The notes under the pieces: model-generated
Seen by the model: the letters and a program-made list of their open reading frames with translations, nothing else
Told to the model about the DNA's origin: nothing
Databases searched by the model: none
Program-made: the position numbers and the translations under genes
Shown: positions 1-8,256 of the stretch, piece after piece
Position numbering within the stretch: the first letter of the stretch is position 1
How the letters are laid out: each line of letters starts with the position of its first letter
Assembly: GCA_021815245.1 (NCBI GenBank)
Contig: JAKAHF010000069.1
Location: 1-8,358 of the forward strand
From: Actinomycetes bacterium
GTDB taxonomy: Bacteria > Actinomycetota > Thermoleophilia > RBG-16-64-13
Direction: 5' to 3'
Length of the DNA stretch: 8,358 nucleotides

Positions 1-1175
1 CCATCTGGTGCGCCCGCCCACTCCCCGATTGCTTGGTTCTGCAGGCCGATCTGGGTCGCATCGGACGTCTCGACGGGCATCGGGAAGGTGCTCATGTAGT
101 CCGGGTGTGCCGTGCGATATGACTCGGGGAACAGCAGCTCGAGCAACTTCATCTCCCGTTGCTGCGGATCGCCCGACGTGTCGGTGAGCACGGCGATGAC
201 CTCCTGAGAGGGCCCCACGGCCGAGGGCCCACCAGCACTGCCGGCGTACGATATCAGTCGCCCGACGACCTGCGGATGGCGCAAGGCAAGATCGATCGCC
301 ACGTCACCCCCCATCGACCAACCCATGACGTCGAGCTTGTCATACCCCAACGCCGTGATAAAGGCCGCGGTGTCATCGGCGAGTTGGCTCAGAGCGTAGG
401 TGCTCTTGGTGTTGGTGGTCTCGCCCATGCCCCGGTTGTCGAACACGATCACCGTGCGATCCGCGGCCAAGGCCGATACCAACGCCGGGGACCACATATC
501 CATCGTCGAACTCGAGCCGATGATGAGAAGAAGTGGGCTCTTGTCCTTGGCCTCCGCTGCCTCCGAAAGTGGACCGATGACACGATAGCCGACAGAGATG
601 TCGCCGACGGTGACGCGCTCGACCGGCGCTGACCGCACGATGTCGGTCGCCATAGAGGTCTCGGCCGCTTTTGTCGCTTCTACGTTGTCGCCATCGGTAG
701 CGATGCCGCCCGCCAAAGCGTAGATGGAGAAGAACAGCATGATAGCCGCGAACGAGGCGGTGCCAACCACCGATCGCCACAGCTTGGCCGGCGACTTGGT
801 CTCGCTCTTGATGTAGCCGTGCGCGTGGAGCATCGCCGCCTGTAGGAGGTATACGGCGTAGCCGAGCACTCCGAGGGCCTGAGCCTTGATACCGAGACCC
901 GCGAAGACGGCCACCAGAGCTATCGCGGCGAAGCCGAGGTTGGCAAAGCCGACCTCGAACGCCCATTCGGGTCGTTCGGTCTCCCAGCCCATGCGCTTCG
1001 CGTCACTCTTGTGAAAGAAGAAGTGGCGCACGAAGGCCAGCACCCCAACGGCCCCCACAGTGGTGGCCGCCACGACGGCGAGAGCGAGTTCTGAGTCTCC
1101 CCCCAAGTAGAAGAACCCGAAGAAGATACCCACAGCTCCCACGAGCATGCCTGTCAAGTTCAGCCACTTGCCCAA
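1..1175 (-). CDS. Membrane-anchored alpha/beta-hydrolase with N-terminal DUF6790-like domain (3' end outside window)
   Basis: The reading frame is open from a stop at 1227-1229 to the left edge, so the C-terminus is missing. Numbered from a TTG at 1175-1173, residues 1-155 hold about five hydrophobic segments (roughly 9-25, 29-50, 76-95, 96-115, 130-153). The motifs RHFFFHKSDAKRMGW and FEVGFANLGF recall the DUF6790 membrane family. After a linker, residues from about 183 are an alpha/beta-hydrolase: GSSSTMDMW, then VFDNRGMGETTNT, then the nucleophile elbow GWSMGG with Ser287 (codon 317-315), then the LLFPESY lid region. The catalytic acid and His would lie beyond the edge. The TTG start is preferred because GAAAGGGG (1188-1181) sits 5 nt upstream; GTG at 1202 (nine residues longer) and ATG at 1148 are alternatives. 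The substrate cannot be read from sequence. Membrane location is inferred from the helices. The gene is divergent from the lipoprotein gene at 1360. Confidence 0.85.
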   Translation of the reverse strand, partial: MGKWLNLTGMLVGAVGIFFGFFYLGGDSELALAVVAATTVGAVGVLAFVRHFFFHKSDAKRMGWETERPEWAFEVGFANLGFAAIALVAVFAGLGIKAQALGVLGYAVYLLQAAMLHAHGYIKSETKSPAKLWRSVVGTASFAAIMLFFSIYALAGGIATDGDNVEATKAAETSMATDIVRSAPVERVTVGDISVGYRVIGPLSEAAEAKDKSPLLLIIGSSSTMDMWSPALVSALAADRTVIVFDNRGMGETTNTKSTYALSQLADDTAAFITALGYDKLDVMGWSMGGDVAIDLALRHPQVVGRLISYAGSAGGPSAVGPSQEVIAVLTDTSGDPQQREMKLLELLFPESYRTAHPDYMSTFPMPVETSDATQIGLQNQAIGEWAGAPD

Positions 1176-1229
1176 GTCGGCCCCTTTCGAAAGGCTTTTC
1201 ACAGGCGGCCCGATGCGGCCCGCTGGCTA

Positions 1230-1359: not shown

Positions 1360-1914
1360 ATGCATACCCTCAGAGAGCGCCCCCGCTTCGCGCTCCGCCC
1401 CTTCGTGGCGATCGTAGTCGTCGCCTCCATGGCCCTGACCTTCGCGTCGTGCGGACCCCGCGAGACCGCACAACCCGTCGGATCGACCGAGACCGTCGCC
1501 CCCACGCTCACGTCCCAACCGTCGACTCCGGGCTCCACGGGGAACCTGGGAAGCACTGCGGAGACGACTGGGCCAGATAGCCACGCGGTCGAACAAGACG
1601 CGCTGCCCGCGATCGTGGTCGATTCGCCGACCCCGGGAGCGACCGTGCAGAGCCCGGTGAGAGTGACCGGCACCGTGATCGGAGGAACTGCCGTCGATGT
1701 CTCGCTCGTGATCGTCTCCGACGACGGATCCTTCATCGCGCGTTGGGCCGAAGCGTTCCAGAACACGGAGGCTCGGGTCGCTTTCGATGAAAGCTTCGCG
1801 TACGCGCCGGCCTATGCAGGAGGCGCGGCGAGGATCGTCATGACCGTGACCGCGGTCACCGCCGATGGCCAACCGACGACTTCGACCATCGTGGTACCCA
1901 TCGATCTGCAGTGA
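1360..1914 (+). CDS. Lipoprotein with Gmad2-type immunoglobulin-like domain
   Basis: The 184-residue product has a type II signal peptide: basic N-terminus (R5, R7, R9, R13), hydrophobic stretch 15-29 and lipobox FASC with Cys31 as the likely lipidated residue. Residues 32-78 are a Thr/Ser/Pro/Gly-rich linker, as expected for a spacer holding a domain off the membrane. Residues 79-184 resemble the Gmad2 domain (Ig-like, associated with spore-germination proteins but widespread in actinobacterial and Firmicute lipoproteins): the opening IVVDSPTPGATVQSPVRVTG is characteristic, followed by alternating beta-strand patterns ending in STIVVPIDL. The start is supported by AGGAG at 1348-1352, seven nucleotides before ATG. 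Nothing catalytic is visible, so a binding or structural envelope role is inferred. It is probably a single-gene unit, because a separate promoter precedes the next gene. Confidence 0.85.
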   Translation: MHTLRERPRFALRPFVAIVVVASMALTFASCGPRETAQPVGSTETVAPTLTSQPSTPGSTGNLGSTAETTGPDSHAVEQDALPAIVVDSPTPGATVQSPVRVTGTVIGGTAVDVSLVIVSDDGSFIARWAEAFQNTEARVAFDESFAYAPAYAGGAARIVMTVTAVTADGQPTTSTIVVPIDLQ

Positions 1915-2141: not shown

Positions 2142-5100
2142 ATGGTTGGCAGAAGACCGGTGCTGCGCAATCTGATGATCGCTGTGATTCTGGTCGCGGT
2201 GATCGGCATCGTGGCCGCCGCCATCGTGGTAGATAGAGCCTCCGCGGTGACGACAAAGCCCGGATGGAGAGTCACCACGGTCGGCCAGTACTCGTCGGGA
2301 GCGGGGAGTCTCCATTCACAACTGAACGGCGACTACATCGTCTATCTCGGCCTCCACGGGGAGGTTCTGCTCTATCGGGTCTCCACCGGAGCGACCACCC
2401 CGATCAAGACCACGACGGACCCTGTCTATGAGCTGCGCAAGGATGGGCGCTACGTGGCCTGGTTCACCGGCGCCGGTGTCTGGGTCTACGACGTAGTAAG
2501 CGCGGGGCCGGCTCAACTGGTGGACACGACCATGGGCACCGACCTCTGCTTGAGCGTGGGCCGGTTGGCATGGCGCGAGGCGGACGGCAAGATCCACATA
2601 TTCAACATCCCCGCTAACGTCGGGCGCACCATCAGCAACCGCGTCGACTCAGGGCTTGAGCTGAACGGCAACTACATGGTCTGGGTGGAGAACGTCTCCA
2701 CGAACAACGTGCCCGGTTTCACTTATCCGACAGATCCCGAGATCATGTTGCATGATTTCTCGACCGCCAAGACCGTCAATATCAGCGGCCTCGCCGCCGT
2801 CAGCTCCTCCATCTTCGGCGGTCGTGACTACGAGCCCCAGGTGGCCGCCAACGGCTTCGCGTTGTGGACGCACGCCAACTTCGCCGGATCTTCGGATATC
2901 TGGGGCTACAACGCCACATCGTATGCCGGCAAGACATTCGGGGTCTCGTACCTCCCGCCCCCGTCCGACCTCCGTCCCTACGAGTCCCCCCTCACCGACG
3001 GCCGCTGGGCGGTCTGGAACTCGGGGAGTGACCTCTGGCTGGCCGACACGCAAGTGCACTATCCCGCTGCGGCAGCCGTGCCTACCCTGATCGTCGGCAG
3101 CGGTGCCGGCACGGGAGGCGTTTGGCACAAGGCCATCGGGGGTGGATGGCTCGTCTACTACAGCGAGCCCAATATCTGGCTGTACGACTGCTCCACGGGC
3201 GTCGGTGAGATCGTGGGCAGTGTGGCGCCACAAGATCTCTATGGCCTGCAGACAGACGGGCAGAGAATAGTGGCGGAGGTCGGCTCCGACACAGACAGCG
3301 CGGTGCTTCTCTTCGAGCGAGGCTCGGCTACGACGACCACGACCACGGCGGCAACGGGCTTCCTGCCGGATCCCAACGGCTACCGGTTCGCCAACCTCGC
3401 CTACAGCGACCCCGGCGCCGCGACAGCGGTATTCACCCATCTGTTCGGAGCCTCTCTCTTCGACAGCCAAGGGGCCCAGCAGTCGATGTCGGCCTCGGCA
3501 AAACAGGCCTACGTCAACGTCTCGGGCATCTACTCCGGCGGCATCTGCTTCGGCATGGCCTCCACGTCCATCTCCTACTTCCAGCGTCATCTCACAACCG
3601 AGAGCATCACGGCGGGTGTGACCACTCTGTGGGGACTCGGGACCTTCGGCGTCACACAGAGCAATCCCAGCACGCTCCCCGCCACGATGAAGTGGAACCT
3701 CGAGGAGTACTACACGGCGCAATGCTCGTCGCTCGTACACGACACCATGTTCGACAGTTCGCACTTCGTGCAGTCCGACACCGCCGCCTCGGCAGCCAAG
3801 CTCAAGAACCTAGTCGCGGCGATTCAGACCAAGGTAATCAGTGAGCCGGTGGTCCTCTGTATCTGGGGCATGATCGGCGCGCAGCAATCTGGGCACGCCA
3901 TCGTCGCCTACCGGGTTGAGAGCGCCGCCGATGGCAATAGTGGCAAGATCTGGGTATACGACAGCAACTACCCGGGAGTGCCTCACAGCGTGTCGTACAA
4001 TCTGAAGACGGGCTCCTGGTCGTATCCCGAACTGTTCTCTGGGGACACCATGATCGCCTACGTCCCCATGTCGTTGGTGTATTCCGTGGTCGACTCGACC
4101 AGCTCCGTCTCCTACTACCCCAATTGGGTATACGCCAACACGGCCTGCAATATCGCCTTTGAGGACTCGTCGGGGCACATCACCGGCAAGACGTCTTCGG
4201 GATACATCTCGACCAACCCGCAGGTGCGGCTGGAGCCGCTGCTCGACGGCCACGCCGGGCAGAGGAGTGTCGACCGCTACGTGGTCGCCGGAAGCTCGGC
4301 ACGCGAATTCACTCTGCAACAGGTAGGCAGCCAGGCAGCCTACGCCGGCGCGCACGGCACGGCCGGCACCTTCCTCGTCTGCAGCACGGGCGCCGGCGGA
4401 GACAGCGTCTCCGTCACGGCCGCCTACTCGGGCGCCGACGTCGGCTTCGCCACCCGATCGGACGCCGATATCTTCATCAGCGCCGAGAACGGTCGGGTGT
4501 GGGCCATGACCACCTTCGAGAAGGACCTCTCCCGCTCCGGCGCCTCCACCGGCGAGGGACGGTTGGCTGTGATCGGCTCTTCGCAGGTGATCATCGAACG
4601 CGACGGTGAGGCGGTGCAGAGTGTGAGCTTGGGCGGCACGACGACCGCTTATACGGTTCCCAGTCTCCCCGATGCCAAGAGAGTCTCCATCGACGTGTCG
4701 ACCTACGACAGCTCCGACGGGACGCTCGAAGTGCGCATCGACGTCAACGGCGACGGCATCTACGAGACCACCGACGAGGTAGACACGACCAATTCGCCCG
4801 CCGGTCCCCAGGGTTTCTGGGATGTCGCGGCCTCGCATCCCTACTATACGGCCATCAACGGCATGGCCGCGGCCGGGGTGATCGGTGGCTACGACGACGG
4901 CAGTTTCGGACCGAGCAAGCCGGTCACGCGTCAGCAGTTCGCCAAGATGATCGTGGGCACTCTCGGCTTCCCCTGCTCCGAACTCGACATCTGCCCCTTC
5001 AGCGATGTGGCCAACGGTGGCCCCACCACCCTCTATCCCGACAACTACGTGGCCGTGGCCGCCGCCTTCGGCATCACCAACGGCATCGGGGGCGGCAAGT

Positions 5101-5399
5101 TCGGTCCCCAGAATCAGATCACCCGGGCCCAGGTGATCACCATGGTGGTGCGGGCCGCCCAGAACTACACCAACGGTTTGGCGACTCCCGACGCGGCCTA
5201 CTACTCGGGCTGGGGGCTGTTTCGCGCCTTCAACGACCCCATCCACGGCTACAACGTCCAGTTGGCCGAGTTCAACGGCCTGCTGACGGGCATTCAGGGA
5301 AGCGGCGACGTGGCGACCTGGCTGTGGCAACCCGCCACTCGGGGAGAGGTCGCCCAGATCCTCTGGAAGCTGATGAACAAGGCCGGGTTGGCAGGGTAG
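2142..5399 (+). CDS. SLH-anchored surface protein: beta-propeller plus papain/C39-like cysteine peptidase
   Basis: The 1085-residue protein starts at ATG 2142, eight nucleotides after AAGAAAGGGG. Residues 11-30 are a signal peptide or anchor after basic R4, R5, R9. Residues about 61-392 hold eight repeats of the type DGRYVAW...VWVYD, beginning near 61, 100, 138, 174, 236, 285, 332 and 371, as in a seven- or eight-bladed TolB-like propeller. A Thr6 run (397-402) is the linker. Residues about 407-640 look like a papain-fold/C39-type peptidase: GGICFGMAS with Cys469, SGHAIVAY with His585, VYDSNYPG with Asp607 (or Asn609). A beta-rich region follows, including DVNGDGIYE (867-875), which resembles an EF-hand or dockerin calcium loop. 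Three SLH repeats (about 892-943, 952-1006, 1021-1080), each with a TR motif (VTRQQ, ITRAQ, ATRGE), should bind cell-wall polymer. Function as a surface protease or peptide-bond-acting enzyme is inferred; its substrate is unknown. A non-peptidase papain-fold role is the alternative. Confidence 0.87.
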   Translation: MVGRRPVLRNLMIAVILVAVIGIVAAAIVVDRASAVTTKPGWRVTTVGQYSSGAGSLHSQLNGDYIVYLGLHGEVLLYRVSTGATTPIKTTTDPVYELRKDGRYVAWFTGAGVWVYDVVSAGPAQLVDTTMGTDLCLSVGRLAWREADGKIHIFNIPANVGRTISNRVDSGLELNGNYMVWVENVSTNNVPGFTYPTDPEIMLHDFSTAKTVNISGLAAVSSSIFGGRDYEPQVAANGFALWTHANFAGSSDIWGYNATSYAGKTFGVSYLPPPSDLRPYESPLTDGRWAVWNSGSDLWLADTQVHYPAAAAVPTLIVGSGAGTGGVWHKAIGGGWLVYYSEPNIWLYDCSTGVGEIVGSVAPQDLYGLQTDGQRIVAEVGSDTDSAVLLFERGSATTTTTTAATGFLPDPNGYRFANLAYSDPGAATAVFTHLFGASLFDSQGAQQSMSASAKQAYVNVSGIYSGGICFGMASTSISYFQRHLTTESITAGVTTLWGLGTFGVTQSNPSTLPATMKWNLEEYYTAQCSSLVHDTMFDSSHFVQSDTAASAAKLKNLVAAIQTKVISEPVVLCIWGMIGAQQSGHAIVAYRVESAADGNSGKIWVYDSNYPGVPHSVSYNLKTGSWSYPELFSGDTMIAYVPMSLVYSVVDSTSSVSYYPNWVYANTACNIAFEDSSGHITGKTSSGYISTNPQVRLEPLLDGHAGQRSVDRYVVAGSSAREFTLQQVGSQAAYAGAHGTAGTFLVCSTGAGGDSVSVTAAYSGADVGFATRSDADIFISAENGRVWAMTTFEKDLSRSGASTGEGRLAVIGSSQVIIERDGEAVQSVSLGGTTTAYTVPSLPDAKRVSIDVSTYDSSDGTLEVRIDVNGDGIYETTDEVDTTNSPAGPQGFWDVAASHPYYTAINGMAAAGVIGGYDDGSFGPSKPVTRQQFAKMIVGTLGFPCSELDICPFSDVANGGPTTLYPDNYVAVAAAFGITNGIGGGKFGPQNQITRAQVITMVVRAAQNYTNGLATPDAAYYSGWGLFRAFNDPIHGYNVQLAEFNGLLTGIQGSGDVATWLWQPATRGEVAQILWKLMNKAGLAG

Positions 5400-6159: not shown

Positions 6160-8256
6160 ATGCTCAGCTCTCTTCTCTATCCGAACAGCATCGCCGTCCT
6201 GGGAGCTTCTCGTACGCCCGGCAAGGTGAGCCACGCCGTTGTGGCCAACCTCCTCTCGGGAGGGTTCGAAGGCGAGATCATTCTCGTCAACCCGGCGGGG
6301 GGCGAGCTGATGGGACTCAAGATGTACACGAGTCTCGCGGAGTACGGCAAGCCCATCGACATGAGCCTGATAGTCGTACCGGCGGCGGTGGTCAGAGAAG
6401 CCGTGCTTCACTCCCTCGGGCAAGACGCCAAATCCATCGTGATCCTCACGTCGGGCTTCAAGGAGGTCGATGAGGCCGGGGCGCGGCTCGAAGCCGAGAT
6501 CGCCGACCTCTGCCTCGCACACGGCACGAGACTGCTGGGGCCCAACTCCCTGGGTCTGATCAACACCCACCACAAGATGAATGCCGCCTTCGCCGGGCAC
6601 ATGCCAAAGGCAGGCAGCATCTCGGTGCTCTCGCAGTCGGGGGCGCTGTGCTCGGCTATTCTCGACTGGGCGGACTCCCGCAGAGTGGGCATAGCGACTC
6701 TGCTCAGCATGGGCAACAAGGCCGACCTCTGCGAAACCGACATCTTGGTCGCGTTCCGGAATGACGAGAAGACCAGGGTCGTCGCGGGCTATCTGGAGAG
6801 CATCAACTCCGGAGAGGAGTTCATCCGCGTGGCTGAGTCGGTCTCGGCGGTCAAGCCGGTGGTGATTCTCAAGGGAGGCACGACCGCGGCCGGCTCCAAG
6901 GCCGCTTCGTCGCACACGGGAGCGCTGGCGGGTACCGACATCGCCTACGAGGCGGCCTTCAAGCGGGCGGGCGTCATCAGAGCCGACACGTTCGAGTCGC
7001 TCTTCGATTTTGCCACCGCCTTTGCCATGCAGCCGCTCCCCGAAGGCAACAGAGTCGCGATAATCACCAACGCCGGGGGGCCCGGAACGATGGCGGCCGA
7101 CGCCGTGGAGCGGGCCGGCATGCAGATGGCATCAATCGACCCCGCGATCCTGGAAGCGCTCAGGGCCAAGCTTCCTGTCGCCGCTCGGGTGGGCAATCCC
7201 ATCGATCTGCTCGAAGATGCCGGTCCGGCGAGCTACGCGCTGGCCATCAAGGCCGTCGAGGCCGATCCTTCGGTGGACGCGTTGATCGTCATCCTCACAC
7301 CACAGGCCGTGACCCGGGCCATCGAGACGGCACGGGCCATCGCGGACAGCGTCAAGGCCAAGCCCCTGTTCGGAGTGTTCATGGGAGGCGGCGACATCTA
7401 CCCCGGCCGCCAGGAACTGGCGCTCGCGAGCCTGCCCAACTACCCATCGCCCGAACGCGCGGTGGCCGCCCTCAAGGCCATGTTGGAATACGCCGCTTGG
7501 CGCACCCGGCCAAAGAGGGTCGTCACCCGGTTCCCGGTCAACCGGCGCCGGGTGAACCGCATCATCGCCCACCAACTTCTCATCGGCCGAACCTATCTCG
7601 GCGAAGTCAGGGCCAAGGACATCCTCAGGGCCTACGACTTCGTCGTGCCCGAGGGCCGCATGGTGAGCACGGTCGACGAGGCCATCGAAGCCGCCTCGCA
7701 GCTCGGCTACCCGCTCGCCATGAAGATCGTGTCGCCCGACATAATCCACAAGTCGGACGTCGGCGGAGTCAAGCTCAACCTTACAACCGAGCGCGAGGTG
7801 GCCGACTTCTTCGAGCTCATGATGATCCGGGTCGCGCGCGAAGCCCCCGGCGCCTTTCTCGAAGGAGTCTATCTGGAGCGCATGGTGGGCAAGGGCCGGG
7901 AGGTCATCCTGGGGATGAGCCGTGACCCCCAGTTCGGCCCGATGCTCATGTTCGGGTTGGGCGGTGTCTTCGTCGAAGTCATGGAGGACGTCTCGTTTCA
8001 TCTCGCGCCCATCACCTCGGCCGAAGCGATGAGCATGCTCAAGAGCACCAGGTCGTACAGACTGCTGGCGGGTTTTCGAGGCGAGGCGAAGGTCGACATC
8101 ACCGTCCTTGCTGAGGCACTGCAGCGCATCAGCCAGCTGGTCACCGATTTCCCCCAGATCTCGGAGCTCGACATAAACCCCTTCATGGTGGGCCCCCCGG
8201 GCGAGGAATCGGTCGTGGCGGACGCACGCATCCAGCTGCAGGCTCCCAATTCATGA
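6160..8256 (+). CDS. acd: ADP-forming acetate/acyl-CoA ligase, fused alpha and beta parts
   Basis: The 698-residue enzyme interconverts acyl-CoA + ADP + Pi with acid + ATP + CoA in the cytoplasm, conserving energy as ATP during fermentation of sugars or amino acids. The alpha part comes first: CoA-binding Rossmann domain with GASRTPGK (15-22) and GPNSLGLIN (127-135), then a succinyl-CoA-ligase-like domain with SQSGALCSAI (158-167), GNKADLCETD (185-194) and SSHTGALAGTD, whose His252 is the expected phosphohistidine. A second Rossmann-like domain begins near IITNAGGPGT (about residue 300). The beta ATP-grasp part covers about 470-695, with IIHKSDVGGVKL including His530 and a FGLGGVFVEVMED segment. 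About 700 residues is normal for fused members. ATG 6160 has GGAGAGG (6144-6150) nine bases upstream. GPNS replaces the more usual GPNC. Acyl specificity (acetate, branched-chain or aryl acids) cannot be told from sequence. Confidence 0.93.
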   Translation: MLSSLLYPNSIAVLGASRTPGKVSHAVVANLLSGGFEGEIILVNPAGGELMGLKMYTSLAEYGKPIDMSLIVVPAAVVREAVLHSLGQDAKSIVILTSGFKEVDEAGARLEAEIADLCLAHGTRLLGPNSLGLINTHHKMNAAFAGHMPKAGSISVLSQSGALCSAILDWADSRRVGIATLLSMGNKADLCETDILVAFRNDEKTRVVAGYLESINSGEEFIRVAESVSAVKPVVILKGGTTAAGSKAASSHTGALAGTDIAYEAAFKRAGVIRADTFESLFDFATAFAMQPLPEGNRVAIITNAGGPGTMAADAVERAGMQMASIDPAILEALRAKLPVAARVGNPIDLLEDAGPASYALAIKAVEADPSVDALIVILTPQAVTRAIETARAIADSVKAKPLFGVFMGGGDIYPGRQELALASLPNYPSPERAVAALKAMLEYAAWRTRPKRVVTRFPVNRRRVNRIIAHQLLIGRTYLGEVRAKDILRAYDFVVPEGRMVSTVDEAIEAASQLGYPLAMKIVSPDIIHKSDVGGVKLNLTTEREVADFFELMMIRVAREAPGAFLEGVYLERMVGKGREVILGMSRDPQFGPMLMFGLGGVFVEVMEDVSFHLAPITSAEAMSMLKSTRSYRLLAGFRGEAKVDITVLAEALQRISQLVTDFPQISELDINPFMVGPPGEESVVADARIQLQAPNS

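What the first reader, a model, noticed from the sequence alone, without database searches (positions are those of the whole stretch)
2142..5399. Surface protein joining a beta-propeller, a papain/C39-like peptidase and SLH anchors
One polypeptide carries eight propeller-like repeats (residues 61-392), a Thr6 linker, a papain-fold domain with Cys469, His585 and Asp607 in the right order and spacing, and three SLH repeats. I do not know a characterised protein with this architecture. The propeller could present substrates or bind a polymer for the peptidase at the cell wall, making it a candidate new class of wall-bound protease or peptide ligase. The residues are seen directly; the function is inferred.
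Basis: partly seen in the sequence, partly recalled or inferred. Interest (0 to 1): 0.7.

Follow-up and report, generated by a model that had tools for sequence, protein, structure and literature searches.

The report
Wall-anchored propeller plus papain-like enzyme
This gene, apparently from an uncultured actinobacterium, seems to encode a surface enzyme that joins an eight-bladed propeller, a papain-like catalytic domain of an unnamed family, and an anchor that ties it to the cell wall.

The parts
2142..5399 (+). whole ORF, 1085 aa (P0001)
   Evidence: relatives P0003 at 71% and P0002 at 68% identity
2142..2243 (+). hydrophobic N-terminus, likely signal peptide or TM helix (residues 1-34)
   Evidence: sequence; helix 7-34 in the model; no signal-peptide program was run
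2268..3317 (+). eight-bladed beta-propeller (residues 43-392)
3330..3347 (+). Thr6 linker (residues 397-402)
3354..4106 (+). papain-like catalytic domain (residues 405-655)
3546..3548 (+). codon of Cys469, proposed nucleophile
   Evidence: 175 of 175 rows with that column
3894..3896 (+). codon of His585, proposed base
   Evidence: 165 of 165 rows with that column
3960..3962 (+). codon of Asp607, proposed third residue
   Evidence: 161 Asp and 3 Asn of 164 rows
4119..4781 (+). beta-rich region of unknown role (residues about 660-880)
   Evidence: strands at low confidence; likeness to the segment after the Cys domain in relatives not established (hhalign probability 2.4%)
4812..5381 (+). three SLH repeats (residues about 891-1080)

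Best explanation
The gene encodes a secreted cysteine hydrolase, most likely an endopeptidase, held at the cell surface by SLH repeats that bind a wall polymer. Cys469 would attack an amide bond, His585 would act as base and Asp607 would orient the histidine, as in papain-like enzymes. The eight-bladed propeller would be the recognition module that brings the substrate, probably another surface or S-layer protein, to the active site. Shown: the ORF; the SLH repeats; the propeller fold by prediction and structure comparison; the conservation of the triad. Inferred: export, anchoring, catalysis, peptidase chemistry, the role of the propeller, the substrate.
Confidence: 0.5

Rival explanations
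1. It is a peptidoglycan or wall-peptide hydrolase: the Cys domain cuts stem peptides or cross-links, as NlpC/P60, CHAP or pseudomurein endoisopeptidases do, and the propeller and SLH hold it to the wall.
Against: One fusion only; no NlpC/P60 or CHAP match; PeiR ties with many other papain-like rows.
Confidence: 0.2
2. It is a transamidase or other amide-transfer enzyme with a papain-like fold (isopeptide or lipoyl-type chemistry) rather than a peptidase.
Against: Those relatives are only about 21-25% identical to the window domain, and gene order need not carry over to a secreted protein.
Confidence: 0.2
3. The domain is catalytically dead or binding-only, and the protein is a surface adhesin or scaffold.
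For: Propeller and SLH modules are common in binding proteins; several other positions (Gly467, Gly471, Pro611) are as invariant as the triad, so structure alone could hold the motifs.
Against: A Cys, a His and an Asp/Asn kept together in 162 of 162 rows is unlike a decayed active site.
Confidence: 0.1

Closest known systems
Cwp84 / Cwp13, papain-type (C1A) enzymes of the clostridial S-layer
   Same: Papain-type domain, an extra domain and a repeat anchor for the wall in one surface protein; Cwp84 cleaves the S-layer precursor (PMC5842191, passages seen).
   Different: Anchor is the clostridial wall-binding domain, not SLH; lectin-like domain instead of a propeller; searches of solved structures with our protein and profiles gave SLH matches but no peptidase.
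Papain-like proteins: streptopain, staphopain, IdeS, PCAT1 peptidase domain
   Same: Order Cys at helix start, His in a strand, Asp/Asn after the next strand (papain order recalled); leading fold matches.
SLH-anchored surface proteins
   Same: C-terminal SLH repeats like those of S-layer protein Sap and of many kin proteins.
   Different: No paper with SLH, propeller and cysteine protease terms together in the library searched.
Tricorn and DPP IV, propeller-bearing peptidases
   Same: A propeller joined to a peptidase; both appear among the propeller matches.
   Different: Serine peptidases (recalled); only their propellers match, and no gating of the active site was shown here.

Membership tests
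Papain-like (clan CA) enzymes | Cys, His and Asn/Asp conserved in that order | tested here: met
   162 of 162 rows covering the three columns
Papain-like (clan CA) enzymes | Cys at the start of a helix; His and third residue on or next to successive strands | tested here: met
   helix 65-78 starts at Cys65 (=469), His181 (=585) in strand 177-190, Asp203 (=607) after strand 196-202 (pLDDT about 60 at the Cys)
Papain-like (clan CA) enzymes | overall fold | tested here: inconclusive
Papain-like (clan CA) enzymes | triad clustered in space | not testable with these tools
   no coordinates are returned
Pfam-modelled cysteine peptidase and transglutaminase families | match to a curated family model | tested here: not met
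   none at E <= 1 in the window protein, none at E <= 0.1 in 31 members
SLH proteins | PF00395 over the cut-off, repeats in tandem | tested here: met
   81.7 bits, two stretches pass alone; third repeat by motif
SLH proteins | host pyruvylates its wall polymer (CsaB) | tested here: inconclusive
   9 of 12 kin genomes at E <= 1e-10, 1 of 12 over the cut-off, control also rings in E. coli; own genome not held
Beta-propellers | circular array of four-stranded blades | tested here: met
Cwp84-type S-layer-maturing peptidases | cleavage of the S-layer precursor | not testable with these tools
   needs biochemistry
Cwp84-type S-layer-maturing peptidases | C1A peptidase sequence family | tested here: not met
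   no Peptidase_C1 match

The most novel reading that the evidence does not exclude
The catalytic domain founds an undescribed papain-like superfamily, spread through Actinomycetota as predicted lipoproteins, propeller-joined and SLH-anchored enzymes and lipoate-cluster proteins, whose members do amide hydrolysis or transfer not covered by any known peptidase family; the window protein is its wall-anchored, propeller-guided form.
Probability: 0.3. Interest if true: 0.72.

Novelty: new variant of a known kind. Interest (0 to 1): 0.5.

Why it matters
If right, a papain-like enzyme family with a strictly kept triad, and no model in the Pfam and NCBIfam copies used here, sits on the surface of many actinobacteria. 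One member is wired to the wall by SLH repeats and carries a propeller, which gives a testable candidate for how SLH-coated actinobacteria process their surface proteins. The small relatives in a lipoate gene cluster offer a separate, easily tested entry to the family's chemistry.

Tried and rejected
Chance motif: rejected, since the triad holds in 162 of 162 rows. Bias to note: many rows came from a search that needs shared short words, and that search scored only the 7998 candidates sharing most words; the genome searches by profile are less biased.

One-off fusion or misassembly: rejected by P0003 (1098 aa, all domains), P0002 (764 aa, ends before the SLH part) and P0119 (propeller and Cys motif, then a tail that looks out of frame).

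Viral origin: a scan of viral contigs gave 16 pattern matches and no relative.

Shared companion domain after the Cys domain: not established (hhalign probability 2.4%, E 0.019).

Relatives by sequence among solved structures: the profiles of A3 and A6 gave three chance-level matches each. No NCBIfam model for the Cys domain in the window protein, four of the relatives or the small protein of L092.

False positive removed: one of the 20 of 396 genomes (L061) is, by reading its sequence, RNA polymerase alpha, leaving 19. Class search: 35 of 399 genomes at E <= 1e-5, at most 6 candidates scored in each; the two draws share genomes.

Promoter, terminator, tRNA and Rfam scans of the window gave nothing useful. 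Paper searches on lipoamidase with papain-like gave none; one search listed one paper (PMC3482391, listing only, not opened).

Full report

The catalytic domain. Searching with residues 400-680 found P0002 (83% in this region), P0003 (74%), P0004 (25%) and P0005 (26%); P0005 led to P0006 and P0007. P0004 has NHL repeats and P0005 Reg_prop repeats over Pfam's cut-off; P0006 has Amidase_3, fn3 and CBM96; P0007 has only sub-threshold propeller and fn3 hints. A plasmid of Rhodococcus encodes another member. A phylum sample gave 20 of 396 genomes with a match at E <= 1e-3, of which one is a false positive; a class sample gave 35 of 399 at E <= 1e-5. A protein search with profile A3 returned 119 proteins, many of one actinobacterial group with lipoprotein-like N-termini (seen by eye).

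Conservation. Mapping everything collected onto the window gave 179 proteins: Cys469 in 175 of 175, His585 in 165 of 165, Asp607 as Asp in 161 and Asn in 3 of 164. All three columns are present in 162, and all 162 keep Cys, His and Asp/Asn; so do 57 of 57 clusters at 60% identity. Some genes are counted twice in the 162 (for example L044 and L100, L045 and L101, the same places in two searches); the clusters remove that. Gly467, Gly471, Asn418, Gln527, Asn609 and Pro611 are nearly or fully invariant. The motif reads GF/Y-x-F-x-N ... G-x-C-x-G ... HA-x-x-P ... VYD-x-N-x-P.

Are the small relatives true relatives? A profile built only from 12 small proteins finds P0001 at E 1.1e-9 among 126 proteins and 1260 shuffles, whose best E is 3.9. 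Profile-profile comparison of the window group with the small group gives probability 95.

Context. The neighbouring CoA ligase gene (6160-8256) is 79% identical to one in a MAG called Actinobacteria (G006), and the SLH part is most like proteins of Actinobacteria and Thermoleophilia MAGs, so the host is probably of that kin; P0002, however, is labelled Armatimonadetes by its source. No match to the Cys domain or to residues 1-873 was found in 12 kin genomes; 2 of 18 genomes of the order of G006 have distant members. The gene is thus patchy. CsaB-like proteins are in 9 of 12 kin genomes, one over the cut-off, with E. coli ringing as a control.

A lead on chemistry. In 12 loci of small relatives (12 of the 13 small-protein genomes; L058 was not extracted) the gene lies on the same strand as dihydrolipoyl dehydrogenase in 12, lipoyl synthase in 10 and LipB in 9; the missing ones fall beyond contig or extract ends. 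NCBIfam names for these neighbours were checked on one locus, L092. The genes are not always adjacent (gaps of 2 to 5 kb in L084 and L086).

How it most likely works. A secreted cysteine hydrolase fixed by SLH repeats, with the propeller as substrate receptor, acting on surface or S-layer proteins. The nearest working analogue is Cwp84: a papain-type domain, a lectin-like domain and wall-binding domains, needed to cleave the S-layer precursor (PMC5842191, passages seen). It works like Cwp84 at most; it is not a member of that family, since no C1A match was found.

Novelty. The kind of protein, a wall-anchored papain-like enzyme, is known. New are the propeller plus SLH architecture (no paper) and the catalytic family, for which no Pfam or NCBIfam model was found here.

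Noticed in passing
L084-L095 (12 loci of unnamed actinobacterial genomes): A small Cys/His/Asp relative lies in a conserved same-strand gene order with dihydrolipoyl dehydrogenase, lipoyl synthase and LipB: a candidate lipoyl-amide enzyme.
   Followed up: partly
window 1360-1914 (+): Predicted lipoprotein (lipobox seen by eye) with a Gmad2 Ig-like domain just over the cut-off, 227 bases upstream on the same strand.
   Followed up: no
window 3-1202 (-): A DUF6790 membrane region fused to an alpha/beta hydrolase, running off the window.
   Followed up: no
L124-L128: Proteins with open frames of 950-1327 aa carry the Cys domain with no other Pfam family over its cut-off in the four scanned.
   Followed up: partly
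L001-L042: 42 loci in Actinobacteria and Thermoleophilia MAGs encode SLH repeats like those of the window, several per genome.
   Followed up: no
P0119: A close relative (82% over 37% of the query) whose sequence turns into an unrelated-looking tail after the Cys motif; looks like a frame change in the source record.
   Followed up: no
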